Shown: positions 2,570 to 21,856 of the stretch, piece after piece
How the letters are laid out: every line of letters begins with the position of its first letter
How positions within the stretch are numbered: the stretch's first letter is position 1
The notes under the pieces: model-generated
Told to the model about the DNA's origin: nothing
The model's database searches: none
What the model saw: only the letters and a program-made list of their open reading frames with translations
DNA from: Streptantibioticus ferralitis
GTDB taxonomy: Bacteria > Actinomycetota > Actinomycetes > Streptomycetales > Streptomycetaceae
Assembly: GCF_029223525.1 (NCBI RefSeq)
Contig: NZ_JARHTQ010000004.1
Span: 124,001 to 188,000 of the forward strand
Length of the DNA stretch: 64,000 bases
Direction: 5' to 3'
Program-made: the position numbers and the translations under genes

Positions 2570-5452
2570 TCAGTGGATCTGGCGGCGGACCAGCTCATGG
2601 AACAGGCCGCCGGTGTCGGCCAGCAGTTCGGCGGGCGGCCCCTGCTGGACGACCCGGCCGTCGGACATGACGACCACCCGGTCGGCGTCCATGATGGTGG
2701 ACAGCCGGTGGGCGATCACCACGCGGGTGGCTCGCAGCTTGCGGGTGCTCTCGATCACCACCCGCTGAGCCTCGTTGTCCAGTGCGCTGGTGGCCTCGTC
2801 GAAGAACAGCACCCGCGGGCGGCGGATCAACGCCTGGGCGATCATCAGGCGTTGGCGCTGGCCGCCGGAAACCGTGCCACCGCCGTCGGAGAGCACGGTG
2901 TGCATGCCCATCGGCATCCGCTTGATGTCCTCGGCCAGCCCCGCCAGCTCGGCGGCCTCCCAGGCCTCCTCCAGGGAGAACATCTCGGCACCGCAGATGC
3001 AGTCCAGGATCGAGCCGGTGAACGGCTGGGCGTTCTGCAGGACGACCCCGCACTGGCGGCGTACGGCTGCCTGGTCGAGGGCCGCCAGGTCCTGGCCGTC
3101 GTAGAGCACGCTGCCAAAGACCGGTCGGTCGAAGCCGATCAGCAGGCGCAGCAGGGTCGACTTGCCGCAGCCGCTGGCCCCCACGATGGCGACGAACTCG
3201 CCCGGTGAGACCCGGAACGTCACGTTGTCGAGCACCAGCGGCCCGTCCTCGGCGTACCTGAAGGACAGGTCCCTGGCCTCGATCTCGCCGGACAGCGGGC
3301 CGGGTGCCGTGCTGCCCCCGCGTACCTCGGGCACCTCGTCGAGCACCGGCTTGATCTGCTCGTACAGCGGGAGGACGGAGGCGGCAGAGATGAGCGCACC
3401 GGTGAGCTGCGTCACCGAGGTCAGCAGCATCGTCACGGCGGTGTTGAAGGTGAGGAAGCTGCTCGCCGAGAGGGAACCGCGGGCTGGACCGGCGAGCAAC
3501 ATGAACATGATGAGCGTGCAGAACGGCAGATAGACCGCGTTGAACACGGTGATCAGGTTCTTGATCCGGCCCACCCGCCGCTGCAGTTCGCGACTGCGGG
3601 CGAACTCGCGTGCCCAGGCCGCGTAGGCGAAGCTCTCCGCCGCGGCGACGCGCAGTTTGGGCAGTCCGCGCAGTGTCTGGAACGCCTGGTTGTTGAGCCG
3701 GTTGTTGAGCACGGTCAACCGGCGCTGCCACCGCAACTGCCACAGGCCGAGAGTGAGGAACACCGCGCCGATGACGACGAGCATCGCCAGCGCCGTCAGT
3801 GCCAGCGAAAGGCTGTACCACAGCAGCAGAACCAGGTTCACCGCACCGACCGTGCAGGCCTGTACGGCCACCGAGCTGATGCCGGACAGTACGCGGCGTA
3901 TCGCGCTGATGCCCATGGCCGCGGTGGCCAGCTCTCCGGTGGAGCGCTCGGCGAAGAACTTCGTCGGCAGCCGCAGCAGCCGGTCCCAGACGGCCGGTTG
4001 CAGCGTGGCCTCGATCCGCCCTTCCATCCGGAGGATGGAGATGTTCTCCAGCAGCATGAACACGGCGGACACGATGGCGGTGGCCACGATCGCCAGTGAG
4101 GTCTGGACGATCAGGCTGTTCTCGGCGTTCGGCACGTAGGTGCCCAGAACCTGCCCGGTCGCGATCGGCACCACCGCCCCGAGGACGACCGCGACCAGTC
4201 CGCCGAGGACCAGGTTGCGCAGGTCCATCCGGGTTCCGCGCAGACTGAAGCGGAGCAACCGCCAGACGGGCAGCGGCTGTTCCGGCAGCGGCCGGTAGAA
4301 CATCACCGCGTGCGACTCGAACTCGTCGGCGTTGGCCGAGCCGATCCTCGTCCGGGCGCCGGTGTCGTCCACCGCCTCGTACCGGCCTCGGCGCCACAGC
4401 AGTGCGACGGGGGCCGCGGTGCCGGCCCGGTAGCCCACCAGCGGGCCGGTGTTCTCCCGCCACCAGCGTCCGGCGAGCTTGACCACCCGGGTACGGAACC
4501 GCGAACTCAACGCGATTCGCTCGACCGGGTTCAGCCGGTCGTTCATGGCGCCGCCCTGCGCGGGTGCCGTGACCGTGATTCCGGCCGCGGCGGCGACCCT
4601 GCGGCAGACGGCGAGTGTGGCGTCGTCAGCCTCCGTGACCGGACCCGCCGAGGTGCGTCCCGACCTGTCGATGGACGCCAGCAGCGCCTGATCCGCCTGC
4701 GCGCGAACGGCCTCGCCGGCCTTGATGCCCGCCGCCGTCCGGTCCTCGTGAGCGCGCTCCAGCTGTTCGATCCAGCGGTCCAGCGCGAACAGCAGCCGGG
4801 CCTGCTGGTCGACCAGGCGCTGCCACAGCGCGCCGTCGATGAGCAGGTCCTTGGCCGCCTCCATGCTGTACGCGGCGCCGTACTGCAGGCTGCCGGGGTC
4901 AACCGACATCCACAGGATGCCGTCGTCGCCCGACTCGTAGTCGCCCGTCGGCCGCCACTCGCTCGGCGGCGCCGCCAACTGCTGGTGCTCGCTGGCCGGT
5001 TGGCCGTTCAGCGGCGTTTCGAACAGGACTCGCAGGCCGCGTCCGATACCGCGGGTGAACGCGTCCTCCAGCGGGCTGAGCCCCCCCTCGGGGACGTGGT
5101 ACGACCAGGTGTCGCCGTACTCCGGCCGGAACAGCTCCCTCAGTTGGATCCGGCGCAGCACGCAACCGCTCAACGGCCTGCCGATGAGGGTGTGTTGCGG
5201 GCCCTCGACCGGTCCGAGCAGTAGAGTTCCGGCTTCCAGCCGGCCGAGGAAATGCCATCGCCCCTGTAGCACGGCGTCCGCCGCGAACAGGTCCATCGCG
5301 CCGTCCGCGACCAGCCACAGCACATGCGGCCCCTCCAGCGGCAGACTGCGCGAGCTCGTGCAGTCCACCGCATCGCCCAGGCCGCCCATGGCGTGCAGCA
5401 CCACGTCGCCCGGCGCGGCGCCGGTGGCCGCCAAGTGGTGAACGGATGTCAC
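2570..5452 (-). CDS. NHLM/NHLP-type bacteriocin export ABC transporter, permease/ATPase subunit (second subunit)
   Basis: About 960 aa. The first ~400 residues form a regulatory-looking region with a cupin or cyclic-nucleotide-binding-like fold, as in the second ABC subunit of NHLM bacteriocin systems. About six membrane helices follow, then an ATPase with Walker A GASGCGKST, signature VSGGQRQR, Walker B VLFFDEATSALD and H-loop IAHRLST. It has no C39 peptidase domain. GTG 5452 is chosen because the upstream ABC gene stops at 5454; earlier starts would lie inside that gene. It probably works with the peptidase ABC protein to export the double-glycine peptide encoded at 8718-8933. Whether it moves peptide itself or powers the complex is unknown. 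Confidence 0.88.
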   Translation of the reverse strand: MTSVHHLAATGAAPGDVVLHAMGGLGDAVDCTSSRSLPLEGPHVLWLVADGAMDLFAADAVLQGRWHFLGRLEAGTLLLGPVEGPQHTLIGRPLSGCVLRRIQLRELFRPEYGDTWSYHVPEGGLSPLEDAFTRGIGRGLRVLFETPLNGQPASEHQQLAAPPSEWRPTGDYESGDDGILWMSVDPGSLQYGAAYSMEAAKDLLIDGALWQRLVDQQARLLFALDRWIEQLERAHEDRTAAGIKAGEAVRAQADQALLASIDRSGRTSAGPVTEADDATLAVCRRVAAAAGITVTAPAQGGAMNDRLNPVERIALSSRFRTRVVKLAGRWWRENTGPLVGYRAGTAAPVALLWRRGRYEAVDDTGARTRIGSANADEFESHAVMFYRPLPEQPLPVWRLLRFSLRGTRMDLRNLVLGGLVAVVLGAVVPIATGQVLGTYVPNAENSLIVQTSLAIVATAIVSAVFMLLENISILRMEGRIEATLQPAVWDRLLRLPTKFFAERSTGELATAAMGISAIRRVLSGISSVAVQACTVGAVNLVLLLWYSLSLALTALAMLVVIGAVFLTLGLWQLRWQRRLTVLNNRLNNQAFQTLRGLPKLRVAAAESFAYAAWAREFARSRELQRRVGRIKNLITVFNAVYLPFCTLIMFMLLAGPARGSLSASSFLTFNTAVTMLLTSVTQLTGALISAASVLPLYEQIKPVLDEVPEVRGGSTAPGPLSGEIEARDLSFRYAEDGPLVLDNVTFRVSPGEFVAIVGASGCGKSTLLRLLIGFDRPVFGSVLYDGQDLAALDQAAVRRQCGVVLQNAQPFTGSILDCICGAEMFSLEEAWEAAELAGLAEDIKRMPMGMHTVLSDGGGTVSGGQRQRLMIAQALIRRPRVLFFDEATSALDNEAQRVVIESTRKLRATRVVIAHRLSTIMDADRVVVMSDGRVVQQGPPAELLADTGGLFHELVRRQIH

Positions 5453-5453
5453 G

Positions 5454-7739
5454 TCAACGCTCCCTGACCAACTCGGCGTACGGCCCCCCGGCGGCGACCA
5501 GCTCCTCGTGCCGCCCCCGCTCCACCACCGTTCCGTGGTCCAGCACCACGATCTCGTCGCTGTCACGCACCGTGCTCAGCCGGTGGGCGATCACCACACA
5601 CGCACACCCGCGCCGCCGCAGATTGTCGATGATCACCTGCTCGGTCTCCGCGTCCAGCGCACTGGTCACCTCGTCGAGCACCAGGATGCTGGGCTGCCGT
5701 ACCAGCGCCCGCGCTATCTCCAGCCGCTGCCGCTGGCCGCCGGAGAAGTTGCGGCCGTCCTGCTCCACCCGGCTGTGGATGCCGCCGGGGCGCCTGGCGA
5801 CCGTGTCATGGACGGCGGCGTCCTTGAGGGCGGCGATGACGGCCTCGTCCGGTATCGACGGATCCCACAGTGCCACGTTGTCGCGGACGGTGCCCTCGAA
5901 GAGGAAGACGTCCTGATCGACGAACGAGACCGAGGCGGACAGCGAACTGCGCGAGATGTCCGCCAACCGCTGTCCATCGATGCGGATCTCACCCTGCCAG
6001 GGCTGGTACAGACCCGAAATCAGCCGGGACACGGTGGACTTGCCGCTGCCGGAGCCACCGACCAGCGCCACCTGCCGGCCCGGGCCCACCGACAGCGAGA
6101 AGTCGGTGAGCAGGGGTTTGTCGAGCGGGCTGTAACCGAAGGTGATGTTCTCCAACGTCACATGTCCGCTGAGCCTGCGGGTGCTCGCGGCCGGTTCGCT
6201 GCGCTGGTACAGCGGGTCCGCGGGAAAGCTCTCGACGTCCCCCAGCCGCGCCACGTCGGCCGTGAAGTCCTGGACCCGTCCCGCCACTCCGTTCAGCCGG
6301 GTGACCGGTGCGGTGAAGCTGGTCACCAGCGCCTGGAAGGCCACCAGCAGACCGATCGAGATATGGCCGTCCACCGCTCGCAGCCCGCCGATCAGCAGGA
6401 TCAGCGCGCTGTTGAACGCCGCGAGGGTGGGCGCCACGACGGCCAGGGCCGCACTCGGCACGCCGAGCCGCTGCTGGCCGTCCAGCGTGGTCGCATGCTG
6501 ACCGGCCCAGCGGCGGAAGTACCCGTTCTCGCCGCCGGTGGCCTTCATGGTCTCGATCAACTGCAGCCCGCTGTAGGAGGTGTTGGTCAGCCGGGCGCTG
6601 TCCGCGCGCAGCCTCTGCACACCGGTGCCCCGGATCCGCACCACCAGCCGTAGCGCCACCACGTTGAGCAGTGCGATCAGCACCCCGATGACGGTCAGCT
6701 GCGGGTCGTACGTCCACAGCAGGACCGCGTAGAGGATCACGACCACGGCGTCCACGCCCGCGGCGGCCAGGTCCCTGGCCAGCGTCTCGGCGACCGCGTC
6801 GTTGGACTGCAGCCGCTGGACGAGGTCGGCCGGGTTGCGCTGGGCGAAGAAGGTGACCGGCAGCCTGAGCAGATGCCGCAGGAACCGGGCGCTGCTCAGG
6901 GTGGACGAGATGATGCGCCCGCGCAGCAGATTCGCCTGCTGCAGCGCGGTCAGCACGGCGGTCAGCGCGACCATGGCCGCCATCGACGCGAACAGCACAG
7001 GCAGCAGGGACGTCTGGTTGCCGAGCAGGAACATGTCGATGTACGTACGGCTCAGGGCGGGTACCGCCGCACCCACCACGACGAGCAGGAAGCTGGCGAG
7101 CACCGCGGCCAGCATCGTGCCCGAGGTGCCGCGCAGCCGCGCGGGCAGCGCGTCGGTGATCCCGGGCTTGCGGCCGCCTCGGCGGAAGTCCTCGCCGGGT
7201 TCGAAGGTCAGCACGACGCCGGTGAAACTGGTGTCGAAATCCTCCAGCGACACGAAGCGGCGGCCCCGGGCAGGGTCGTTGATGTGCACTCCAGCGCGGC
7301 CGAAGCGCCGACTCATCCCGTCGTACACGACGAAGTGGTTGAACTCCCAGAACAGGATGGCGGGCGCCCGCACCTCGGCCAGAGCGGCCGGTTCCATCTG
7401 CATGCCCTTGGCCGTCAGGCCGTATCCGCGGGCCGCCCTGAGCAGGTTGCTGGCCTTGGAGCCGTCGCGGGAGACGCCGCAGGCGATCCGGAGTTCCTCG
7501 AGCGGCACATGCCGCCCGTAGTGGCCGAGAACCATGGCCAGTGAGGCGGCACCGCACTCCACGGCCTCCATCTGAAGGATGGTGGGAGTGCGGACGGTCT
7601 TCTGGCGCCTCGCCCGCGGCGGCGGCTTGAGCGCCGCCCGGCTCGGACGGTGCCGTCCGCCGCCCTGCTGGTTCGGGCGGTGCCGTCCGCGCTCGGAGAG
7701 CGGCGGCGCCTGCGGCGCGGGGTCGTGCTGTGCGGTCAC
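5454..7739 (-). CDS. NHLM/NHLP-type bacteriocin exporter: C39 peptidase-permease-ATPase
   Basis: About 761 aa. The N-terminal C39 peptidase has a Cys at ~62 in ECGAASLAMVLGHYG, a His at ~135 in FNHFVVYDG and an Asp at ~155 in INDPARG, so the catalytic triad is intact. A six-helix permease and an ATPase follow, with Walker A GGSGSGKST, signature FSGGQRQR and Walker B ILVLDEVTSALD. Enzymes of this type cut leader peptides after Gly-Gly and export the core. GTG 7739 overlaps the HlyD stop as GTGA, indicating translational coupling; longer readings upstream run through the HlyD gene in the wrong frame. The ~50 residues before the peptidase are rich in Arg, Pro and Gln and look disordered. Confidence 0.92.
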   Translation of the reverse strand: MTAQHDPAPQAPPLSERGRHRPNQQGGGRHRPSRAALKPPPRARRQKTVRTPTILQMEAVECGAASLAMVLGHYGRHVPLEELRIACGVSRDGSKASNLLRAARGYGLTAKGMQMEPAALAEVRAPAILFWEFNHFVVYDGMSRRFGRAGVHINDPARGRRFVSLEDFDTSFTGVVLTFEPGEDFRRGGRKPGITDALPARLRGTSGTMLAAVLASFLLVVVGAAVPALSRTYIDMFLLGNQTSLLPVLFASMAAMVALTAVLTALQQANLLRGRIISSTLSSARFLRHLLRLPVTFFAQRNPADLVQRLQSNDAVAETLARDLAAAGVDAVVVILYAVLLWTYDPQLTVIGVLIALLNVVALRLVVRIRGTGVQRLRADSARLTNTSYSGLQLIETMKATGGENGYFRRWAGQHATTLDGQQRLGVPSAALAVVAPTLAAFNSALILLIGGLRAVDGHISIGLLVAFQALVTSFTAPVTRLNGVAGRVQDFTADVARLGDVESFPADPLYQRSEPAASTRRLSGHVTLENITFGYSPLDKPLLTDFSLSVGPGRQVALVGGSGSGKSTVSRLISGLYQPWQGEIRIDGQRLADISRSSLSASVSFVDQDVFLFEGTVRDNVALWDPSIPDEAVIAALKDAAVHDTVARRPGGIHSRVEQDGRNFSGGQRQRLEIARALVRQPSILVLDEVTSALDAETEQVIIDNLRRRGCACVVIAHRLSTVRDSDEIVVLDHGTVVERGRHEELVAAGGPYAELVRER

Positions 7740-8542
7740 GGCAGGAGCCAATCGATCGGGCGCTGCGCGGCGAGGTGGATGGCGCCGCTGACCAGCGTCG
7801 TGGAGTCGATCGCATACGGCGGGCCGCCAGCCGACGACCAGGTGTACCCGGACCTCGTGCTCGTCGAGCGGTCCAGTTGGACCATGACCGCCACCGGTTG
7901 GCCCTGCGCCGAGAACTGGTCGCCCAACTGGCTGTCCCCGAGGAAGCTGGTGATCTGCTGCCGGGTCTCGGGAACCCGGCCGACCGCCAGCACCCGGCCG
8001 CGCAGCACACCGAACCGCTGCGCCGGGACCGACTGGACGGTCAGGTCCACCGGTGAGCCCACCGGGACCGTCGGTGCGCCGCTGGCCGGCGCGTACAACA
8101 CGGCCACCAGGGGGTCGTTGGCGTTGTCGATGCGCTCCACCGTCGCCAGATCCGCGCCGGTGGTCACCACCGCACCGATCTTGGCCGCCAGTGCGGTCAC
8201 CCGGCCCGCGGCCACCGTACGTACGGTCACGACCTTCTGGTCCGTGCGCACGCTCAACAACCGTGCGCCGCTGGGCAACACGTCGCCTTCGTTGGCGAAT
8301 ACGGCGGTGATCTGGCCGGCTACCGGGCTCTGCAGTACGTAACTGCCCTCCGCATGGGTCAGGATCCCCGGTGCGCTCAGCTCGGGTGAAACGGAGCCGG
8401 TCACCGACCAGAATCCCGCGACGGCCATAACGAGCACCGTGACAGTAAGCACGAGCCAGCCCTGCGGCCGGGCGAAACGCACCGGTACGTCGAGCTCCTC
8501 GGGCGATTGCAGCTTGGCAAGCGCTTTTTGCCGGAACTGCAC
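7736..8542 (-). CDS. HlyD-like periplasmic-adaptor-type secretion protein (NHLM system)
   Basis: 268 aa. A cytosolic segment of ~30 residues is followed by one membrane helix (WLVLTVTVLVMAVAGFWSV) and then a biotinyl-lipoyl-like domain (GSYVLQSPVAGQITAVF, EGDVLPSGARLL) and a beta-barrel region, the layout of HlyD-type proteins of NHLM bacteriocin loci. The GTG start at 8542 follows GAAGGA at good spacing. The 3' end overlaps the peptidase ABC gene. In a Gram-positive host it would span membrane and wall and help move the peptide out. It lies between the precursor gene and the two ABC genes, so it is the first export gene of the operon. Confidence 0.87.
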   Translation of the reverse strand: MQFRQKALAKLQSPEELDVPVRFARPQGWLVLTVTVLVMAVAGFWSVTGSVSPELSAPGILTHAEGSYVLQSPVAGQITAVFANEGDVLPSGARLLSVRTDQKVVTVRTVAAGRVTALAAKIGAVVTTGADLATVERIDNANDPLVAVLYAPASGAPTVPVGSPVDLTVQSVPAQRFGVLRGRVLAVGRVPETRQQITSFLGDSQLGDQFSAQGQPVAVMVQLDRSTSTRSGYTWSSAGGPPYAIDSTTLVSGAIHLAAQRPIDWLLP

Positions 8543-8604
8543 GGACTATTCCTTCAACTGCATTCGTATCGGTTTGCCGACGACTGTCTGCCAACGGCAT
8601 CCAA

Positions 8605-8632
8605 GGGCCCCGGAACAAAGCTTCCGAGGCCC
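8605..8632 (-). terminator. Hairpin between precursor and export genes (likely partial terminator)
   Basis: GGGCCcCGGAA and TTCCGaGGCCC form a 10-bp stem with one mismatch and a 6-nt loop. It lies after the precursor stop and before the HlyD start. In peptide bacteriocin operons such hairpins keep precursor mRNA in excess over transporter mRNA; that role is inferred here. Confidence 0.5.
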
Positions 8633-8717
8633 ATGGCCAACTCTACGGGAATTCAGATGTACCGGTAGGTTGAGGGGTGATGCATCGGGCTATGACGTCT
8701 TGCGACGATCGTCCCCG

Positions 8718-8933
8718 TCAGAGACCGGCGAGACCGGTGACGCCCGGGACCAGGCCGGTGACCTGCCCGACCGTCGGGCCGACGCCCGGCACGACGGAGT
8801 CAACGGTGCCGACGACGGACCCGACCACACCCGAAACGTTGAGGCCGAGGGCGCCGACGCCACCGGACACGTTGTCCAGCTCGGTGTCGTCGATCTCACG
8901 GGTCTCGACCTGGGGCGTGAAGTCCTTACGCAT
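8718..8933 (-). CDS. Double-glycine leader peptide, Cys-free Gly/Val-rich core (putative bacteriocin or signal precursor)
   Basis: 71 aa. ATG 8933 follows GAAGGGAAG. The leader is ~25 acidic residues ending in the motif ELDNVSGG, a classic double-glycine site for a C39 peptidase. The predicted 46-residue core has 14 Val, 12 Gly and 5 Leu, a few Thr, Ser and Pro, one Asp, and no Cys, Lys, Arg or aromatic residue. Core glycines at 27, 31, 35 and 39 form a GxxxGxxxGxxxG ladder, typical of tightly packed transmembrane helices. The export genes lie directly downstream on the same strand. No lanthionine, YcaO or radical-SAM enzyme is visible, so I favour an unmodified class II bacteriocin or signal. 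A lanthipeptide is unlikely without Cys. The mature function is unknown. Confidence 0.75.
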   Translation of the reverse strand: MRKDFTPQVETREIDDTELDNVSGGVGALGLNVSGVVGSVVGTVDSVVPGVGPTVGQVTGLVPGVTGLAGL

Positions 8934-9634
8934 GACTTGCGCTTCCCTTCGTTGTTCTGGAAGTTCTGAATGGGTGTCGGCCAACTCGACGTCAAGCCGA
9001 GCCGGCCGGTGCAACGGTCGTCTGATGCCCGAAACCGGGAACCTCTTTTTACAACTCCCGTATGTCGCAGAATGCAATCACGTCGGCGGGCCGCCGGGCC
9101 AGCTGAGGGTCGGGGTTTTCCGTGAACGTTTCGGCAGCTCATTACGTTGGCGTGCAGCATCGTCCACCGGATGGTGACGACTTCTTCACATGCACATTTG
9201 CCCAATTCCCGTGGTTTGGTCCGACAGTTGGGCCCTGCCGTACGTGCCTCTGTCCGGGTTTGCCGGTGCTCCGCGCCGCCAGGTCACTCCTGGTCGTGTG
9301 TGCCTTCTGCGGACACGGTGTGCAGGGGTGCCTCGGCGGATCACGGCCTCGGACGCTCCACCGGCTGACGGCAGTTGGCGGAACCTGGCTCCGCATGCGG
9401 TCGTCGTCCGCCCCCCTGCGCGACCCTGGTGATGATGTGAAGCGCCGACGCGCGCACGCGTGCGTTGCGCACCGAGCGCCGTTGCCGCACACCCCTCACA
9501 CTGGGTAGCAAATTGGAGTCACATGTATACAGTGAGTGATGTTCTGGTGGCTCGGAACGGAAGTTGGCGATGGAACGGAAGTCGACTGGCCGTAACTGGT
9601 CGCGTACCGGCATGGATCGACTAAGGAGGCATGG
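8934..9634. other. 700-bp intergenic region between the peptide operon and a divergent small gene
   Basis: It must hold the promoter of the peptide operon (minus strand) and that of the 101-aa gene (plus strand). Open frames here have poor codon bias. I saw no clear -35/-10 pair or operator. A GC-rich alternating stretch with a self-complementary ACGCGT core lies near 9450. Confidence 0.5.
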
Positions 9635-10399: not shown

Positions 10400-11869
10400 A
10401 TGGCGGCCCGTCCACTCGTCGCACGCCAGCCGAATGAGCGGCTGCAAACGCTGATTCAGGAAGCGGGAGTATCCAATGCCGGATTGGCCCGGCGGGTCAA
10501 TTTGTGCGGGGCCGAGTACGGACTGGACCTGCGCTACGACAAGACGTCCGTGGGCCGTTGGCTGCGCGGCCAGCAGCCGCGCGGCAGGGTGCCCACGATC
10601 ATCGCCGAGGCGCTGGGCCGCAAGCTCGCCCGCAAGGTGTCGATCGAGGAGATCGGCATGGGAAGCGGCAAGAACCCGGCCTCCGAAGTCGGCCTGCACT
10701 TCGCGTCCACCGTGCCGGGCACGGTGGACCAGGTGTGCGAACTGTGGCTGAACGACGCCAGCGGCAGCAACTTCCTGACCGGAGCGACACTCCCGGTGTC
10801 CGCGCTGGTCGAACCCAGCCGCGACTGGCTGATCACCGACCCGGACCCCATGGTCGCGCGCAGCGGCGGACTGCGGGTCGGCGCGTCGGACGTGACCGCG
10901 GTGCGTTCGGCGACGCAGGCGATGGTGGACCTGGACCACCGGTTCGGTAGCGGGCATGTGCGCCCGATCGTGGTGCACTACCTCAACAGCGTCGTCTCCC
11001 CGCTGCTCGCGGGCTCGTATCCGGAGGCGACCGGTCGGCAACTCTTCGCCGCCGCCGCCCGGTTGACCGAGCTCGCCGGATACATGGCGGTGGACACCGG
11101 ACGGCCGGGTCTGGCCCAGCGGTACTACATCCAGGCACTCAGACTCGCCCAGGCCGCGGGCGACCGCGGCTACGGCGGGTACGTACTGGCCGCCGGGATG
11201 AGCCATCTCGCCGCGTCCCTGGGCAACCCCCGGGAGATCGCACAGCTGGCCAGGGTCGCCCAGGAGGGCGCGCGCGGCCATGTCACGCCCACCTGCCAGG
11301 CGATGTTCTACGCCGCCGAGGCGCGCGGGCACGCGCTGCTCGGGGACGCGCGGGCGTGCGGTGTGATGGCGGGCAAGGCGGTGGAATCGCTGGAACGCGG
11401 TCACCCCGAGGATGATCCGGAGTGGATCGCCCATTTCGGCGCGGCCTATCTGGCCGATGAGTTGGCGCACTGCCATCGCGATCTGGAACAGCCGGAACCG
11501 GCCGTACGACGCGCCGAGGAGGCACTCGCCGGACACCCGGACACCCGGGTTCGGCGGCGTGTCATCGACATATTGCTGCTGGCCGCCGTCCAGGTCGCGA
11601 CGCGTGAGGTGGAACAGGCCTGTCATACGGCGACACAGGCGGTGGAACTGCTGTGCGGGCTGCGATCCAACATCGGCGCCGAGTACCTGGGCGACTTCCG
11701 GCGCCGGCTGGAGCCGTTCGCAATGGTGGCGGAGGTAAGGGAGTTCGAGACCCGGCTCCAGGAACGCGAGCGGGAGGGGTATCAGATCCGCTGCCGCGAT
11801 CGCGATGCCTACGAGGAGCAGGGTCTGCTGCCGGGCCAGCGCTTGGAGCCGTGGCTCGGCGGGCTCTGA
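10400..11869 (+). CDS. HTH-TPR transcriptional regulator of the NsdA/NsdB type
   Basis: 489 aa. The N-terminus (ERLQTLIQEAGVSNAGLARRVN ... TSVGRWLRGQQPRG) is a Cro/XRE-like helix-turn-helix. Residues ~190-460 are TPR-like helix repeats (GRPGLAQRYYIQALRLAQAAGDRG, GNPREIAQLARVAQEGA, VEQACHTATQAVELL). Streptomycetes carry several such proteins, and NsdA and NsdB members repress sporulation and antibiotic production in S. coelicolor. The target here is unknown; the peptide operon and PKS are nearby candidates. ATG 10400 follows AAAGGG. It is a single-gene unit, convergent with the ATPase gene downstream. Confidence 0.75.
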   Translation: MAARPLVARQPNERLQTLIQEAGVSNAGLARRVNLCGAEYGLDLRYDKTSVGRWLRGQQPRGRVPTIIAEALGRKLARKVSIEEIGMGSGKNPASEVGLHFASTVPGTVDQVCELWLNDASGSNFLTGATLPVSALVEPSRDWLITDPDPMVARSGGLRVGASDVTAVRSATQAMVDLDHRFGSGHVRPIVVHYLNSVVSPLLAGSYPEATGRQLFAAAARLTELAGYMAVDTGRPGLAQRYYIQALRLAQAAGDRGYGGYVLAAGMSHLAASLGNPREIAQLARVAQEGARGHVTPTCQAMFYAAEARGHALLGDARACGVMAGKAVESLERGHPEDDPEWIAHFGAAYLADELAHCHRDLEQPEPAVRRAEEALAGHPDTRVRRRVIDILLLAAVQVATREVEQACHTATQAVELLCGLRSNIGAEYLGDFRRRLEPFAMVAEVREFETRLQEREREGYQIRCRDRDAYEEQGLLPGQRLEPWLGGL

Positions 11870-11993: not shown

Positions 11994-12034
11994 CTGACCG
12001 TCGGCTGTCCTGGCCCGCTCGCGGGGCCGGTCAG
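11994..12034. terminator. Nested inverted repeat between convergent genes
   Basis: An outer CTGACCG/CGGTCAG pair encloses an inner GGCCC/GGGCC pair. It sits between the regulator and the ATPase gene, whose stop it overlaps, and could end transcription from both sides. Confidence 0.4.
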
Positions 12035-12561
12035 CGTCGGCAGCGGAACTCCTGCCGTCCGTCGTGGGGAACGGGCACCGCGGCCCACACGGCGCAGCTG
12101 CCGTCCGCGCCGAAGCGCCGACCCCAGCCCCGCGCCAAACTCGCGACCAGGGTGAGCCCGCGGCCGTGGTCCCTGGCGTCCCCGGCCGGGTTCACCTGGG
12201 GTGTGGACCATCTCCCGCCCTGGTCGCGGACCTCCACGAAGAGCACATCACCCGATGTCCACAACCGGCAGATGACGCGGGAACTCTCGGAGTGGCGGAT
12301 CGCGTTGGTGGTGAGCTCCGACAGCACCAGCTGGACGGTGTACCGGGTGTCCTCATCAAGGATCCGCGCCGCGTCCAGCCACAGCAGCGCGAGTCTTCGG
12401 CAGACGGGTACCGCCCGGTCCAACGGCGGTGTGGAGAACACGAGCGGGTCGCCCGTCGGCCACTGGCCCAGCCAGGCCAGCGTCTCCCTCGCCTTGGGCC
12501 ACTCTTCGATCTCCTGGGTCGTCAGCTCGATCTCGATGCCGCATGTGGTGGTTGGCAACAT
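12031..12561 (-). CDS. Anti-sigma-type ATP-binding protein (HATPase_c_2, RsbW-like)
   Basis: 176 aa. It has the GHKL motifs of the short streptomycete ATP-binding family: N-box ELTTNAIRHS, G1 box VRDQGG and G2 box HGRGLTLV. Proteins of this type act as serine kinases or binders of anti-anti-sigma factors or regulate sigma factors. No partner gene is adjacent. ATG 12561 follows GGGAG at ~7 nt. Streptomycetes encode dozens of these, so a specific role cannot be given. Confidence 0.85.
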   Translation of the reverse strand: MLPTTTCGIEIELTTQEIEEWPKARETLAWLGQWPTGDPLVFSTPPLDRAVPVCRRLALLWLDAARILDEDTRYTVQLVLSELTTNAIRHSESSRVICRLWTSGDVLFVEVRDQGGRWSTPQVNPAGDARDHGRGLTLVASLARGWGRRFGADGSCAVWAAVPVPHDGRQEFRCRR

Positions 12562-14053: not shown

Positions 14054-17000
14054 CTAGTTCGCGGCCAGCTCAAGACCCATGCGCTCGGCCAGGCCGTCTG
14101 CCAGTGCCGCCAGTGTCGGGTGCTGCCATACGAAGTTGCTGGCGAGCTTCACGCCGAAGGCGGATTCCAGGCGGACGCGCAGTTCCATGGCCAGTAGGGA
14201 GTCGAAGCCGAGCGCCTTCAGCGGTGTTTGCGGGTCGAGGGTGTTGCTCCCCAGTCGCAGGACGGCCCGGATGTGCTCGGAAAGGAAGCCCTCCAGCGCG
14301 GTGCGGCGGGTCAGCCCGGCGGGCATGGCGGCAAGCCGGACGCGGATGTCGTCGGTGTTTTCCTGCTGGGCGTCCGTGGCGTCATCGCCGGGGCGCAGCA
14401 GCCGGAAAAGCGATGAATTGCGCCCGGCGTGTGGGAGCCAGGTGTCCGGTTCGCCGGGAATCACGCCGGTCTGCACCCGTCGGTGCACCAACAGAGCGTC
14501 CAGGGCTTGCAGCCCCTTTTCGGTGGGAATCGTGTGGTAGCCGCGGGCGGCGAAATCCGTGGCGGCACCGATTTCGCCCCACGGACCCCAGTTGACGGCC
14601 AGCGTGGGCAGTCCGCGGGCCGAGCGCCAGGCGGCGAATCCGTCCAGCCAGGCATTCGCTGCGGCGTAGGCGCCCTGGCCGGGGTTGCCCAGCAGTGAGG
14701 CCATCGACGAGAACACGGCGAACCAGTCGAGCGAGTACCCCGCGGTGGCGTGGTGCAGCTGCCATGCGCCGGTCACCTTGGGAGCCCACACCCGCCGCAA
14801 CTGGTCATCGCGGATGTTGGTGATCGCGGCGTCGTCGAGGGTCATGGCGCAGTGCACCACGCCCCGCAGCGACAGGTCGTCGACCGTGGCCGCGGCCACC
14901 AGACGCTCGGCGGTGGCCGGTTCGGCGATGTCGCCCAGCGACACCGTGATCTTGGTGCCGCCGGCGGCCAACTCACCCAGCGTCTGCGAGGCCGCGGGGG
15001 AGGGCGGCGTACGGCCGTTGAGCACCAGGTGCCCCGCTCCCCGACCGGCCAGCCAACACGCGGTCGCCAGACCGAGACCGCGCAGGCCGCCGGTGACGAT
15101 GTACGCGCCGCCGCGCTGCACGGCCAGCGGGCCGTCCGGGAGCACCGCGGCGGTCTCGCCGCGGTCCGGGACCGTCAGCACCAGTTTGCCGATGTGGCCC
15201 GCACCCGCCATCAGCCGGAACGCGTCGGTGGCCGCGGACAGCGGGAACGTCGTGCAGTACAGCGGTTTGAGCCGCCCCCTGGCGAACTCGGTGAGTACCT
15301 CCCGCAGTACCGTGGCGAACACCTCGGGCCGGGTCCTCTGCAGTCCGATGAGGTCGACCGCCCTCATGGTGATGTTGTGGCGGAACGGCGACAACCCCAG
15401 CGGCACATCGGAGATGATGTCGCGAACCCCCAGTTCGACGAAGCGGCCGAAGGGGCGCAGGGACTCCAGGCCCGCCCGGATCGCCGCACCGGACAGGGAG
15501 TTGAGGACCACGTCGACGCCTTCGCCTCCGGTGGCCTCCCGGACCCCGTCGCGGAAGTCCAGCGTCCGGGAGTCCATCACATGGGAGACGCCCATCGCGT
15601 GCAGATAGCGCCGCTTCTCCTCGCTGCCCGCGGTGGCCAGCACCTCGGCGCCCAGCAGCCGGGCGACGGCGATCGCGGCCAGGCCGGTTCCGCCGGTGGC
15701 CGAGTGGATCAGGACCCGTTCGCCTTCGGCGAGTTGGCCGATGTGGCGCAGGGCGTACCAGGCGGTGAGGAACGCGGTCGGCAGCCCGGCCGCGGCGACC
15801 GGTTCCAGCCCGGCGGGGATCGGTGCCACCGCTTCCGCGGGTACGGTGGCGAACGAGCCGAAGGCGCCGCCCCGCAGGTCGGCGGCGAGCACCTGGTCAC
15901 CGACCCTGACATGGTCGACGCCCCGCCCCACCGCGGTGACCACCCCCGCGCACTCGAAGCCGATCCGGTAGCGGACCTCCTGGCCGCCGGGGAGCAGCCC
16001 CATGGCGGTCAGCACATCACGGAAGTTCAGTCCCGCCGCCACCACGCGCAGTTCGACCTCACCGGCTTCGGGCGAACGCCGTCCCGTCACGGCCAGTTCC
16101 AGGCTCTCCAGGTCGCCGGGGCGGCCCACCCGCAGCCGGAACCCGTCCACGCCGTAGTGCACCGTGCAGGCCGCGGCCCGGCCGCGCTCCTCGTCCGACA
16201 GCGGGGCGTAAGCCAGTTGGGCCACGTAGCGCCCGCCGCCGCGCAGCGCGACCTCGTCCTCGGCACCGCCCGCGAGCAGTTCCTCACTCACCGCCACCAG
16301 CTCGGCGTCATCCGGGTCGGCGTCCACCAGGGTCGCCCTCATGTCCGGGTGCTCGAACGCCAACACCCGTACCAGCCCGCGCACGGAGCTCTGCCCGAGG
16401 CACGGGGTGTCCCCGGGCTCCACACCATGGGCACCGCGGACCACCGCGTACAGCCGTGCCGGTTCCACCGAGTGGGCGGCGAGGGCCTGGGCGACGCCGA
16501 GCAGCCGCCGGGTGCGCCGCAGCGATTCGTCCGGGTCCTCACCCGACCGCGCCCCGCACACCAGCACCACGGCCCCGGGGGGTGTCGGGCGATCCATCAG
16601 CCGACCGGCGACCGACTCCCTGAAGGACTCCAGCCCCTCGTCGTCCAGCCCGGCATCCCAGACCTCGGTCTGCGCCCCGGCCCGCTCCATGGCGGCCGCG
16701 AGGGTCTGCGCGGAGCCGTCCGTCTCACCGATGATCAGCCAGTTTCCCGGCCGCCGCACCGGCTTGGACTCCGAGCGCGCGGTGCGCTGCCAGCCGACCT
16801 CCAGGAACCACTGGTCGACCTCGGAACCGTGCTGCGCGGTCCGGCGGGTGAACAGCAGCCCGTCGATGGCTAGCACGGGTCTGCCGACCTCGTCGAGCAG
16901 CCGAACGTGCCCGATGACGGCGTCATCGGTGACGTCGACGAGGCGGGCGTGGCAGTAGACGGCGGTGGTGGGATCGCCGAGGAGCCGCACCGCCTGCATC

Positions 17001-20000
17001 CGAACCGGCAGGATCAGGCCGCGATCGCCGTCCTCCTGGATCAGCTGCGCGACGACGAGTTGTGCGCACTGGTCGACGAGCACCGGATGGATCCGCAGTG
17101 CCACCTCCGGCGTCCGAGCGGCGGCGGGCACTTGCACCCGGGCCCAGAAGCTCTCGCCCTGACGGGACGCCCGCAGTTCCCTGACCCCGCTGAACGCCTG
17201 GCCGTGCTCAAGGCCCCTGGCCCGCAGGCTGCGGTACAGATCGGCGGGGTCGAGCGCCACCGGATGCCGAAGGGCCAGCGTGACCACGGAGGCGGCGTGC
17301 GGCTGCGGCGGCATGTACAGGCAGCGCAGCATGGCGGTGGCGTGCAGCACCCACGTGCCGTCGTGACCGCGGCCGAAGACCTCGCACCTGGCACGGTCCG
17401 CGGCGGCCAGGGTCACGGTCGTGCTGACCTCGGTCCGCTCCGCTAGCCGCAGCAGCTCGTGGAACCGCAGGTCGGTGACCTCCACCTGCTCGGGTTCGAC
17501 ATCGAACGCCTCGCACGCCGCGGTCAACGCCAGGGCGTAGTAGGCGGAACCGGGCAGGACCGGCTCGCCGTGCACCCGGTGGTCCGCCAGCCAGGGCAGC
17601 AGCGCCGTTCCGGCGTCGCCGTGCCAGCAGTGGCGTACCGGTTCACCGGGTACCTCCGTGTGACCGCCGGGCAGCGGGCCGCGCGTGCCGTCGGACGCGG
17701 TGTCGGTGCGGGGCGCGGAGACGTCGATCCAGTGGTGCTTCCGGTCGAACATGATGGTGGGCACGTCCGCGAGGTGCGCGTCCCCGTACAGCGTCGACCA
17801 GTCCACGGTCACGCCCGCGCAGTGCAGCGCGGCCAACTGGTGGCGGAATGTGGCCGGTTCGTGCTCACCGCGGCGCAGCGTGGGCAGTACCACCGGCTCG
17901 TCGACCAGGTCGATCAGGCACCGGTTGACGGAGTGGGTGACGACCGGATGCGGGGAGACCTCCACGAACACCAGGTGCCGGTCGGCCGCCGCGGCGGCCA
18001 CCGCCGTGGTGAACCGGACCGGGCGCCGCAGGTTCGCGCACCAGTAGTCGGCGTCGAACGCGGGGACATCGCGTGGATCGTCCAGCACGGTCGAGTAGAA
18101 GGGGATGCTCGGGCGACCCGGCGTCAGATCGGCGCACGCCGCCCGTAGTTCGGCCAGCAGCGGTTCCACCTGGACGGAGTGCGAGGCGACGTCCACGGCG
18201 ATCAGGGAGGCCGGGACGCCTCGCCGCTCCCAGGCGGCGACCAGCCGTTCCACCTCGTCGTTGTCGCCCGCCACGACGGTGGAGTCCGGTGCGGCGAGCA
18301 CCGCCACCGTGACCGAGTCGGTGGCGGCGAGTTCGGCCTCCACCGCGTCGGCCGCCAGCCCCACCGTCGCCATGGCACCGAGACCGGCGATCCGGCCCAG
18401 CAGCGCGGACCGTCGGCAGATCACCCGTGCGCCGTCGGCCAGCGAGAGCGCCCCGGCCACCACGGCGGCCGCCACCTCGCCCATCGAGTGGCCGATGACC
18501 CCGGCCGGTTCGACGCCGTGCGCGCACCAGGCGGCGGCCAGCGCGGTCTGTACGGCGAACAGCACCGGTTGCACGGTGCCGCAGCCGTTCACCGGCTCGC
18601 CGCCGCGCACGATGTCCAGTACCGAGAAACCGGCCTCGGCGGCGATCAGCGCATCGGCCTCGGCGAGGGTGGCGGCGAAGGCCGGTTCGCTGTCCAGCAG
18701 GCCGCGTCCCATCCCCGCCCACTGTGAGCCCTGCCCGGAGAAGACCCACACCGGCCGCCGGGAGACCTCGGCGCCCACGGCCCCCGACACCACACCCGGA
18801 TGTTCGCGCCCGGCGGCGAACGACCGCAGGGCGCGCACGAGTTCGCGACGGTAGGCGGTCGTCACGCCCAGTCGGCCGCGGCCCGGGCTGCGGCGCAGGG
18901 CCAGGGTGTGGGCGATGTCGCGCAGCGGCACCAGGGCGCCGTCGCCCTCGACCCAGTCGGCCAGACGGCACGCGGCGGCCGGTAGCGCGGCCGAAGACCC
19001 CGCCGGTACCAGGAAGACCTCCGGCGGTGTCGGCGTGGTCTGCCGGGGGCGCGGCACCTGCCGGTGCACCGACAGGTGAGATGCCTGTTCCAGTACGACA
19101 TGGGCGTTGGTCCCGGAGAACCCGAAGGAGGAGACCGCGGCCTGCCGGGACGCGGTGCGTACCGGCCAGCGGGTGAGCTCGGTGGGGACGAAGAAGCGCG
19201 TTCCCTCGGCGTTGATGGCCGGATTCCACCGGCTGAAGTGCGCGTTGGGCGGGATCAGTCCATGGCGCAGACAGCTGACGGCCTTGATCAGACCGGTGAT
19301 TCCGGCGGCCGGTTCCAGATGGCCCAGGTTGGTCTTGACCGACGTCAGGGCGCACCGGTCAGGACCGACGCCGTACACCTCGGCCAGGCTGGCGAACTCC
19401 ATCGGGTCACCCACCGGGGTGCCCGTGCCATGCGCCTCGATCATGCCGACGTCGCGCGGGTCCACACCGGCCCGGCTGAGCGCCTCCTTGAACAGCGCCT
19501 GCTGGGCGGCGCCGGACGGCGCGGCCAGACCGTCGGACCGGCCGTCCTGGTTCACCGCGGAGCCGCGCACCACGGCCAGTACACGGTCCCGGTCCCGTAC
19601 CGCGTCGGCCAGGCGCTTGAGCACCACGACGCCGCATCCCTCACCGCGGACGAAGCCGTCGGCGGCGGCGTCGAAGGTGTGGCAGCGACCCGTCGGCGAC
19701 AGCATGCCCATCCTGGCGAACGACAGCGTGGTCCTGGAGTCGAACATCAAGGTGACGCCCCCGGCCAGCGCGAGGTCGCATTCGCCCGCGCGCAGCGCCT
19801 GGCAGGCCAGATGGACGGCGACCAGCGAGGACGAGCAGGCGGTGTCCAGGGCCACACAGGGACCGCGCAGCCCCAGCAGATAGGAGATCCGGCCCGCGGC
19901 GACGCAGTGCCCGTTCGTCAGGATCGAGCCTTCGAGTTCCTGGGGCTGCCCGGCCAGGCGGTCCATGTAGTCGGTGTAGCTGAGCCCGGTGAAAACCCCC

Positions 20001-20380
20001 GTCGGAGTGTCGTTCAGCCGGTCCGGCACCAACCCGGCGTGCTCCAGAGCCTCCCAGGTGACCTCCAGCAGTAACCGGTGCTGCGGGTCGAGCACATCGG
20101 CCTCGCGACCGGACACACCGAAGAAGTCCGCGTCGAAGCCCGCCACCTCCCGCAGGTATCCGCCCCGGGAGGGCACGGTGCGCTCGCCCCGTGCCGGACC
20201 GGGCCGCGGTGGCCACAGGTCCGCCCGCTCGCGCGGCGGCAGCCCCACCGCGTCGCGCCCCTCGGTCAGCAGCCGCCACAGCGCGGCGGGCGAGTCGACG
20301 TCGCCCGGCAGCCTGCACCCCATGCCGAGGACGGCGATCCGCTCCGGCCGTTCGCTGGTTGCGGGTGTCTGCTGGCGCAT
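14054..20380 (-). CDS. Single-module, fully reducing type I polyketide synthase (KS-AT-DH-ER-KR-ACP)
   Basis: 2108 aa. KS ~14-435: Cys182 in DTACSSS, His317 in EAHGTG, His354 in NLGHLEP. AT ~545-840: Ser632 in GHSMGE; VASH at ~731 leans to methylmalonyl-CoA, but the loading choice is uncertain. DH ~915-1180: HxxxGxxxxP at His934 and Asp1103. A structural KR half spans ~1195-1420. ER ~1430-1735 has a nucleotide loop near SATGGTGLA. KR ~1755-1945 has VTGGLRGLG, Ser~1892 and Tyr1905, and an LDD motif suggesting B-type stereochemistry. ACP ~2030-2100 has Ser2061 in LGFDSLL. All domains look active. Domain order and single-module size resemble mycocerosic-acid-synthase-like iterative PKSs. There is no thioesterase domain, so release must use another enzyme. 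It shares an operon with the KS and DUF5988 genes. Confidence 0.93.
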   Translation of the reverse strand: MRQQTPATSERPERIAVLGMGCRLPGDVDSPAALWRLLTEGRDAVGLPPRERADLWPPRPGPARGERTVPSRGGYLREVAGFDADFFGVSGREADVLDPQHRLLLEVTWEALEHAGLVPDRLNDTPTGVFTGLSYTDYMDRLAGQPQELEGSILTNGHCVAAGRISYLLGLRGPCVALDTACSSSLVAVHLACQALRAGECDLALAGGVTLMFDSRTTLSFARMGMLSPTGRCHTFDAAADGFVRGEGCGVVVLKRLADAVRDRDRVLAVVRGSAVNQDGRSDGLAAPSGAAQQALFKEALSRAGVDPRDVGMIEAHGTGTPVGDPMEFASLAEVYGVGPDRCALTSVKTNLGHLEPAAGITGLIKAVSCLRHGLIPPNAHFSRWNPAINAEGTRFFVPTELTRWPVRTASRQAAVSSFGFSGTNAHVVLEQASHLSVHRQVPRPRQTTPTPPEVFLVPAGSSAALPAAACRLADWVEGDGALVPLRDIAHTLALRRSPGRGRLGVTTAYRRELVRALRSFAAGREHPGVVSGAVGAEVSRRPVWVFSGQGSQWAGMGRGLLDSEPAFAATLAEADALIAAEAGFSVLDIVRGGEPVNGCGTVQPVLFAVQTALAAAWCAHGVEPAGVIGHSMGEVAAAVVAGALSLADGARVICRRSALLGRIAGLGAMATVGLAADAVEAELAATDSVTVAVLAAPDSTVVAGDNDEVERLVAAWERRGVPASLIAVDVASHSVQVEPLLAELRAACADLTPGRPSIPFYSTVLDDPRDVPAFDADYWCANLRRPVRFTTAVAAAAADRHLVFVEVSPHPVVTHSVNRCLIDLVDEPVVLPTLRRGEHEPATFRHQLAALHCAGVTVDWSTLYGDAHLADVPTIMFDRKHHWIDVSAPRTDTASDGTRGPLPGGHTEVPGEPVRHCWHGDAGTALLPWLADHRVHGEPVLPGSAYYALALTAACEAFDVEPEQVEVTDLRFHELLRLAERTEVSTTVTLAAADRARCEVFGRGHDGTWVLHATAMLRCLYMPPQPHAASVVTLALRHPVALDPADLYRSLRARGLEHGQAFSGVRELRASRQGESFWARVQVPAAARTPEVALRIHPVLVDQCAQLVVAQLIQEDGDRGLILPVRMQAVRLLGDPTTAVYCHARLVDVTDDAVIGHVRLLDEVGRPVLAIDGLLFTRRTAQHGSEVDQWFLEVGWQRTARSESKPVRRPGNWLIIGETDGSAQTLAAAMERAGAQTEVWDAGLDDEGLESFRESVAGRLMDRPTPPGAVVLVCGARSGEDPDESLRRTRRLLGVAQALAAHSVEPARLYAVVRGAHGVEPGDTPCLGQSSVRGLVRVLAFEHPDMRATLVDADPDDAELVAVSEELLAGGAEDEVALRGGGRYVAQLAYAPLSDEERGRAAACTVHYGVDGFRLRVGRPGDLESLELAVTGRRSPEAGEVELRVVAAGLNFRDVLTAMGLLPGGQEVRYRIGFECAGVVTAVGRGVDHVRVGDQVLAADLRGGAFGSFATVPAEAVAPIPAGLEPVAAAGLPTAFLTAWYALRHIGQLAEGERVLIHSATGGTGLAAIAVARLLGAEVLATAGSEEKRRYLHAMGVSHVMDSRTLDFRDGVREATGGEGVDVVLNSLSGAAIRAGLESLRPFGRFVELGVRDIISDVPLGLSPFRHNITMRAVDLIGLQRTRPEVFATVLREVLTEFARGRLKPLYCTTFPLSAATDAFRLMAGAGHIGKLVLTVPDRGETAAVLPDGPLAVQRGGAYIVTGGLRGLGLATACWLAGRGAGHLVLNGRTPPSPAASQTLGELAAGGTKITVSLGDIAEPATAERLVAAATVDDLSLRGVVHCAMTLDDAAITNIRDDQLRRVWAPKVTGAWQLHHATAGYSLDWFAVFSSMASLLGNPGQGAYAAANAWLDGFAAWRSARGLPTLAVNWGPWGEIGAATDFAARGYHTIPTEKGLQALDALLVHRRVQTGVIPGEPDTWLPHAGRNSSLFRLLRPGDDATDAQQENTDDIRVRLAAMPAGLTRRTALEGFLSEHIRAVLRLGSNTLDPQTPLKALGFDSLLAMELRVRLESAFGVKLASNFVWQHPTLAALADGLAERMGLELAAN

Positions 20381-20437
20381 CGGGCTCTCCGTACGTTGTT
20401 CTGCGGCCCCACGCGGGCCGGGTGTGTCGAATCGGGG

Positions 20438-21772: not shown

Positions 21773-21856
21773 GGCGCGCTCCTGAGGCAGAGGGGATTCA
21801 TCATCGTGGCTCCTGCGAGTTTTCGATCTACGGCGTTGTTGGAATGTGGACATGTC

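What the first reader, a model, noticed from the sequence alone, without database searches (positions are those of the whole stretch)
8718..8933. Cys-free, glycine-zipper double-glycine peptide: a probable new bacteriocin or signal type
Seen: a 25-residue acidic leader ending in ELDNVSGG and a 46-residue core made mostly of Val and Gly, with glycines at core positions 27, 31, 35 and 39 (GxxxG ladder), no Cys, no aromatic and no basic residue. Known: C39 exporters cut after Gly-Gly, and GxxxG ladders pack membrane helices. Inference: the mature peptide inserts into membranes or self-assembles (pore, amyloid or surface film) and is not a lanthipeptide. I know of no described family with this composition and this export system.
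Basis: partly seen in the sequence, partly recalled or inferred. Interest (0 to 1): 0.82.

Follow-up and report, generated by a model that had tools for sequence, protein, structure and literature searches.

The report
Streptomycete glycine-faced helix export peptide
A short, acidic, cysteine-free peptide that many streptomycetes appear to make, cut and export with their own dedicated pump; it is a likely relative of a little-studied Streptomyces coelicolor gene (SCO0753), and its sequence pattern suggests a greasy helix that works at the cell surface.

Summary
In detail: a 71-aa double-glycine peptide is encoded on the minus strand (8933..8718). It is a gene: homologues occur in 229 of 394 sampled Streptomycetaceae genomes. 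It heads a four-gene cassette: peptide, HlyD, C39-peptidase ABC, second ABC; the three export proteins pass the curated cut-offs of the NHLM/NHLP export trio. 'No described family' is wrong: the gene order matches S. coelicolor SCO0753-SCO0757, whose Cys-free hydrophobic peptide is in print (PMC6629963). No maturase or immunity gene recurs in 34 loci (frames of 60 aa or more). The GxxxG ladder of this one peptide is not above chance (p 0.25). The family core does carry a strong alpha-helical hydrophobic periodicity (z 23.5 on 38 cores; this peptide p 0.0002): one face V/L/I, the other mostly glycine; no beta signal. Many copies, exporter-linked or orphan, share a promoter-like motif and a stem-loop after the stop codon, suggesting one regulon and one exporter serving several peptides. 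Best reading: an unmodified, exported, anionic amphipathic helix acting on the producer's own envelope or hyphal surface; bacteriocin and signal remain open. New variant of a known kind.

The parts
8718..8933 (-). precursor gene, 71 aa: leader 1-25 ending in VSGG, core 26-71
8942..8950 (-). likely ribosome-binding site GAAGGGAAG; similar GAAGGGAA stretches stand before the ATG of many homologues
   Evidence: sequence; by eye
9069..9084 (-). promoter-like motif GACGTGATTGCATTCT (family consensus gnCGTGcTTtgATC), found before many operon and orphan peptide genes
   Evidence: LLR 320 against 53-61 in five mononucleotide shuffles; CGTGNTTNNAT matches once in the window, 0.49 expected and 39 of 100 shuffles have at least one, so the single match is not evidence by itself
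8978..9008 (-). 13-bp stem-loop in the presumed 5' leader of the message; counterparts in a subset of homologues
   Evidence: whole segment z -1.4, so weak on its own
8601..8636 (-). stem-loop between peptide gene and hlyD; presumed attenuator or stabiliser; counterpart after the stop codon of most homologues examined
   Evidence: z>2 in 48 of 53
7736..8542 (-). HlyD-like protein, 268 aa, TIGR03794 over cut-off (168.6 v 156.2 bits)
5454..7739 (-). C39 peptidase-ABC transporter, TIGR03796 over cut-off (1026.6 v 853.3); start codon inferred (GTG overlapping the hlyD stop)
2570..5452 (-). second ABC transporter, no Peptidase_C39 hit, TIGR03797 over cut-off (890.4 v 709.4); start codon inferred

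Best explanation
The peptide is the precursor of an unmodified, exported, anionic amphipathic helix. Shown by sequence: leader with a conserved GG site; HlyD/C39-ABC/ABC trio next to the peptide in 34 distinct loci; no recurrent maturase or immunity gene there; cores without Cys and never net positive in the 54 analysed; strong alpha-helical periodicity with a V/L/I face and a glycine face. Inferred: the C39 domain cuts after GG, the two ABC proteins and HlyD export the 46-aa core, and the same exporter also takes the orphan paralogues encoded elsewhere in the genome. Inferred with less certainty: outside the cell the helices pack through their glycine faces or lie at interfaces, as a surface-active or membrane-associated coat of the producer's own hyphae, switched on with envelope genes. 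In S. [quoted passage not shown] Likelihoods as I see them: GG cleavage and export by this trio 0.9; helical glycine-faced core 0.75; function on the producer's own surface rather than against rivals 0.45.
For: Wide in Streptomycetaceae: 229 of 394 genomes. In 396 genomes across the phylum 19 hit: 11 Streptomycetaceae with leader matches, and 8 of one other family with only a 43-44-residue V/G-rich stretch inside frames of 459-477 residues, which I take for chance. Peptide and TIGR03796 exporter go together: 225 both, 4 peptide only, 21 exporter only, 144 neither of 394; the two mismatches that I opened, of 25, were not real ones (G091 has a divergent peptide, G233 has an ABC1 matched in two pieces). 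Trio beside the peptide in 36 of 47 loci examined, 34 after dropping L047 and L050; 11 loci are orphans (loci picked by me, so no frequency). Presumed catalytic Cys, His and Asp of C39 kept in 36 of 36 rows (role of these residues recalled). Only peptide, HlyD and ABC genes recur in more than 4 of 34 neighbourhoods. Cores: Cys 0 of 54, net charge -4 to 0 in 54 of 54 counting K, R, D, E. Helical periodicity: z up to 23.5 on 38 cores, z -0.7 to 0.9 at 160-180 degrees; p<0.05 in 42 of 54 cores, this peptide 3.85 v 1.04, p 0.0002, with 0 of 85 segments of four other window proteins as high. Face opposite V/L/I: 43% Gly.
Against: No function has been tested. Shuffle z-scores treat related cores as independent. 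12 of 54 cores lack significant periodicity, 8 of them among the 13 orphan peptides. AlphaFold2 gave helices but at pLDDT 55 (7 sequences). Gly-rich stretches are poor helix formers in water (recalled); a helix would need membrane or self-association. The surface role rests on expression data of one paper and its authors' own guess; in that strain many envelope genes changed. Pfam Bacteriocin_IIc is the best weak hit (E 3.2e-4, below gathering), which favours the bacteriocin rival.
Confidence: 0.5

Rival explanations
1. A class II type, unmodified bacteriocin: glycine-packed helices form a pore in membranes of related actinomycetes; immunity is built into the exporter or into the producer's envelope.
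For: Best weak hits of the peptide are Bacteriocin_IIc (E 3.2e-4), lactobin/cerein 7B class IIb (E 0.006) and bacteriocin_sig (E 0.05), all below cut-off; C39 exporter; GxxxG helix packing is typical of class IIb (recalled; papers seen in a search listing only); two loci carry two peptide genes side by side (L076, L078).
Against: No immunity-like small gene recurs in 34 loci (frames under 60 aa were not clustered); cores are anionic to neutral in 54 of 54, unlike the usual cationic class II peptide (recalled); carried by 229 of 394 genomes of the family, so close relatives as targets would often be carriers too.
Confidence: 0.25
2. A secreted signal: the core or fragments of it are sensed by a receptor and report on density or envelope state.
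For: Widespread; expression depends on a two-component system in S. coelicolor (PMC6629963, passages); no immunity gene recurs; variable cores (mean pairwise identity 0.35 against 0.71 for leaders); some genomes have two or more copies.
Against: No kinase or receptor gene recurs beside it (a family that I read by eye as a LuxR-type regulator is present in 4 of 34 loci); core length varies from 39 to 62 aa and composition and periodicity are kept rather than residues, which fits a physical role better than a receptor ligand.
Confidence: 0.12
3. A modified RiPP whose maturase is encoded elsewhere in the genome (dehydration, epimerisation or other changes of Thr/Ser/Val residues).
For: Thr and Ser make 18% of family cores; five of 25 members have weak L_biotic_typeA hits (best E 0.0057); unlinked modification genes are reported for related systems (nine lanM genes away from the other biosynthetic genes, PMC3140520, passages).
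Against: No maturase recurs in 34 loci; no Cys in 54 cores, so no lanthionine. Flanking genes of single loci were not all scanned for maturases, and whole genomes were not searched for them.
Confidence: 0.08

Closest known systems
SCO0753-SCO0756 of Streptomyces coelicolor (PMC6629963, passages seen)
   Same: Cys-free hydrophobic 77-aa peptide, then HlyD, ABC, ABC, then exopolyphosphatase SCO0757. Homologues of the window peptide stand in that order with a Ppx/GppA gene next in at least eight genomes; one of them (L113) reads 77 aa from its first Met in the pattern used.
   Different: The SCO0753 letters themselves could not be fetched, so the match rests on gene order, length and composition only. 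In the window the gene after the cassette (138-2168, other strand) has no Ppx hit.
NHLM/NHLP export systems (TIGR03794, TIGR03796, TIGR03797; PMC2887384, passages seen)
   Same: All three export proteins over the curated cut-offs.
   Different: The precursor has a 25-residue class II type leader, with no hit to the nitrile-hydratase (TIGR03793) or Nif11 (TIGR03798) leader models listed at E<=1, and no maturase gene recurs beside it.
Class II / IIb double-glycine bacteriocins (PF10439, TIGR03949)
   Same: GG leader, C39 export, no sign of modification genes, Cys-free core, Gly-spaced helix (family traits recalled).
   Different: Below the cut-offs; anionic; no immunity gene recurs; some paralogues stand alone in the genome under a similar promoter-like motif.
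Staphylococcal phenol-soluble modulins of the beta type (recalled, no call)
   Same: About 45 residues, anionic, amphipathic helix, ABC-exported, tied to dispersal of aggregates.
   Different: No leader and no C39 cleavage there; no sequence relation tested.

Membership tests
SCO0753 family | peptide gene directly before HlyD, C39-ABC and ABC genes | tested here: met
   34 distinct loci
SCO0753 family | exopolyphosphatase gene after the second ABC gene | tested here: inconclusive
   Met in relatives: a PF02541 match starts 2.9-3.1 kb after the ABC1 match, same strand, in G225, G280, G155, G275, G365, G267, G213 and G350 (44 genomes asked, the rest not counted). Not met in the window.
SCO0753 family | residue identity with SCO0753 itself | not testable with these tools
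NHLM/NHLP bacteriocin system | export trio TIGR03794/03796/03797 | tested here: met
   168.6, 1026.6, 890.4 bits, all over cut-off
NHLM/NHLP bacteriocin system | NHLP or Nif11 type leader on the precursor | tested here: not met
   no TIGR03793/TIGR03798 hit for P0002 at E<=1
Class II double-glycine bacteriocin (PF10439, TIGR03949) | match to the family model over cut-off | tested here: not met
   21.1 v 27.1 and 16.3 v 21.5 bits
Class II double-glycine bacteriocin (PF10439, TIGR03949) | neighbouring immunity gene | tested here: inconclusive
   none recurs in 34 loci among frames of 60 aa or more; shorter frames not clustered
Class II double-glycine bacteriocin (PF10439, TIGR03949) | antibacterial activity | not testable with these tools
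   needs the peptide
Lanthipeptide | Cys in the core | tested here: not met
   0 of 54 cores with Cys
Lanthipeptide | lanthionine synthetase in the cluster | tested here: not met
   none recurs in 34 loci; none among the window frames scanned

The most novel reading that the evidence does not exclude
Streptomycetes coat or disperse their own hyphae with a family of unmodified anionic helices that pack through glycine faces (a helical surfactant or cross-alpha assembly). The copies in a genome, scattered or not, are switched on through one promoter type by an envelope-sensing system and leave through one C39 pump: a third kind of hyphal surface peptide beside SapB and the chaplins.
Probability: 0.25. 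Interest if true: 0.75.

Novelty: new variant of a known kind. Interest (0 to 1): 0.5.

Why it matters
A small exported peptide kept by more than half of the sampled Streptomycetaceae (229 of 394 genomes) has, as far as my searches show, no tested function; in S. coelicolor its likely homologue tops the list of genes over-expressed when mycelium grows dispersed (PMC6629963). If it is a surface-active helix, it offers a handle on pellet formation, a known nuisance of Streptomyces fermentation, and it shows that the NHLM exporter also serves unmodified peptides. It also warns that labels such as 'bacteriocin' or 'lanthipeptide' for these clusters are unproven.

Tried and rejected
GxxxG ladder as a signal: not above shuffles for this peptide. 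Beta amyloid: no beta periodicity. Plasmid-borne spread: no match in the plasmid collection. Solved structures: nine sequences at E 0.09-0.43, eight of them GAPDH, read as chance. AlphaFold2: pLDDT 55, not used for fold search. Rfam on 8400-9600: one sub-threshold hit, on the plus strand. 5' stem-loop as an RNA element: consensus stem of 7 pairs, one with a double change, on 16 upstream pieces picked by eye; weak. Selection: 28 non-independent close pairs, pooled pN/pS 0.39 leader and 0.60 core, so no positive selection on average (includes L028, whose first residues do not fit the family). Stem pairing counts cover 37 of 54 downstream regions (30 distinct), those that fitted one register; as hairpins were chosen by pairing, only the z-scores are evidence. 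Shuffles keep single-base content only, and one search gave the shuffles 20 starts against 60 for the real set. One search read minus-strand loci in the wrong direction; redone. Dropped rows: one true member without an ATG start (L025 = L058) and identical peptides; L021 (contig end). Literature: ten searches; SCO0753 occurs in 2 papers and SCO0756 alone in 2 more (passages). GarR/GarS and two-component review papers say nothing on SCO0753 (passages).

Full report
What is there. The finding's coordinates hold, on the minus strand, a 71-codon gene for a 25-residue acidic leader ending in DNVSGG and a 46-residue core of V, G, L, T, S, P, A, N, D, Q. The stated features are correct. In 396 genomes across the phylum 19 hit: 11 are Streptomycetaceae; 8 are of one other family, where only profile positions 23-67 match inside frames of 459-477 residues, which I read as low-complexity chance. 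The plasmid collection gave none.

The cassette. Next on the same strand come HlyD (7736-8542), a C39-peptidase ABC protein (5454-7739) and a second ABC protein (2570-5452). They pass the curated cut-offs of TIGR03794, TIGR03796 and TIGR03797. In 47 loci examined (picked by me from the hit lists, orphans on purpose among them) the peptide has this trio next to it in 36 (34 distinct, as L047 and L050 repeat L013 and L012); in 11 it stands without one. The presumed catalytic Cys, His and Asp of C39 are kept in 36 of 36 rows. Over 394 genomes peptide and exporter co-occur: 225 both, 4 peptide only, 21 exporter only, 144 neither (exporter called at E<=1e-250, 246 genomes; the tool counts 245 over the family cut-off). 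I opened two of the 25 mismatches: the exporter-only G091 has a divergent 83-aa peptide in place, the peptide-only G233 has its ABC1 matched in two pieces.

No partner enzymes. Clustering the frames of 60 aa or more that a simple GC3-based caller gave around the 34 distinct cassettes returned the ABC proteins (34 loci), the peptide (28), HlyD (18), then one family in 4 loci and one in 3. The 28 and 18 reflect my crude caller; tblastn finds peptide and HlyD in all 34. By eye the last two are a LuxR-type regulator and a secreted protease (not scanned). In the window, scans of ten further frames showed an NsdA-type regulator, a histidine-kinase-like ATPase domain, polyketide synthase and ketosynthase domains, and no maturase. 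Single neighbours of other loci were not all scanned.

Already in print. PMC6629963 (passages) describes SCO0753: 77 aa, 57% hydrophobic, no cysteines, upstream of SCO0754 (HlyD) and SCO0755/0756 (ABC), with SCO0757 an exopolyphosphatase; conserved in many Streptomyces; the most over-expressed gene in the dispersed SCO5282-D125G strain and almost silent in the null mutant; the authors suggest a change of the hyphal surface. PMC5733086 (passages) reports SCO0753 up in an aor1 mutant. Here, of 44 Streptomycetaceae genomes asked for PF02541, eight that I checked by coordinates (G225, G280, G155, G275, G365, G267, G213, G350) have such a gene starting 2.9-3.1 kb after the ABC1 match on the same strand, that is, right behind the second ABC gene; in others it lies further off, and I did not count all. 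Twelve loci with a PF02541 gene within about 6 kb were fetched; the trio follows the peptide in 12 of 12, a family peptide was read by pattern in 11, in the twelfth (L109) found by tblastn only, and L113 reads 77 aa. SCO0753 letters were not available, so the link rests on order, length and composition.

What the core looks like. In 54 distinct peptides (one further member without an ATG start left out) no core has Cys, none is net positive, 11 have F, W or Y and 8 have K or R. Leaders agree to 71% on average, cores to 35%, yet composition stays: G 22, V 19, L 12, A 11, T 10, S 8%. The GxxxG count of the window peptide is not above shuffles (4 v 2.64, p 0.25); family total 177 v 115. The clear signal is hydrophobic periodicity. 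On 38 cores left after a 75% string-similarity filter, power at 100-110 degrees per residue exceeds shuffles by z 19.8-23.5, with nothing at 160-180 degrees; Gly-Gly and V/I/L pairs are in excess at spacings 3, 4 and 7. One by one, 42 of 54 cores reach p<0.05: 5 of the 13 orphan peptides and 37 of the other 41 (my tally; a few of the 41 were not checked for a neighbouring exporter). The window peptide is the strongest of the 54 (3.85 v 1.04); p 0.0002 on 5000 shuffles, and none of 85 segments of four other window proteins comes near (5 of 85 at p<0.05). One face is V/L/I/A, the opposite 43% Gly and 11% Pro. A Pro invariant in the 25 aligned members, in mid core, suggests a hinge. AlphaFold2 offers helices 16-28, 33-47 and 52-61 at pLDDT 55, which only agrees, no more.

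One regulon. Upstream of 49 peptide genes (5 near-identical dropped of 54) a motif gnCGTGcTTtgATC scores LLR 320 against 53-61 in five shuffles. Of the 12 orphan copies in that set 6 score above 15 bits (L010, L011, L056, L065, L072, L079), 4 between 10 and 15, and 2 lack it (L052, L066); of the other 37, 32 score above 15. Scores are in-sample. It resembles an extended -10 element (recalled). After the stop codon a stem-loop stands out in 48 of 53 genes (z>2; mean z 5.2), 12 of 13 orphans and 36 of 40 others; before hlyD it may keep exporter levels below peptide levels (inference). So orphans are probably co-expressed and use the exporter in trans (inference).

Verdict. Export and GG cleavage by the neighbouring trio is very likely on sequence. 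A glycine-faced helix is likely. What it does is open: I prefer action on the producer's own envelope or surface (breadth, no immunity gene seen, anionic cores, envelope-linked expression in S. coelicolor), with bacteriocin second and signal third. It is not a lanthipeptide. Novelty: a variant of known GG-peptide/NHLM export systems, previously noted under one gene name; the helix pattern and shared regulatory elements did not turn up in my ten searches, which were aimed at gene names and system terms rather than at those patterns.

Noticed in passing
L046 9026-9256 (- strand), same genome as the window: Orphan paralogue (76 aa, 51% identical) without an exporter gene within the 18.5-kb stretch, with the same upstream motif and a stem-loop after the stop.
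   Followed up: partly
L076 9161-9897 and L078 9037-9773: Two different family peptides encoded side by side, with no exporter trio in the fetched stretch: a possible two-peptide pair.
   Followed up: no
L065 9305-9526: Orphan family member with a histidine-rich core (seven His); metal binding would be worth a look.
   Followed up: no
L120 9947-12201 (G233): C39 ABC gene matched in two pieces beside an intact peptide gene; assembly error or decay not told apart.
   Followed up: partly
L028 1489-1725: Peptide whose first residues do not align with the family although its core is 91% like that of L020; looks like a change at the start.
   Followed up: no
window 8978-9008 (- strand): 13-bp stem-loop between promoter motif and start codon, with relatives in a subset of operon and orphan copies.
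   Followed up: partly
window 14054-21853 (- strand): Large polyketide synthase frame (ketosynthase, acyltransferase, dehydratase, enoyl- and ketoreductase, carrier domains) with a second ketosynthase-like frame next to it.
   Followed up: no
window 10400-11869 (+) and 12031-12561 (-): NsdA-family regulator and a histidine-kinase-like ATPase protein beside the cassette; neither formed a recurrent cluster in the other loci.
   Followed up: partly
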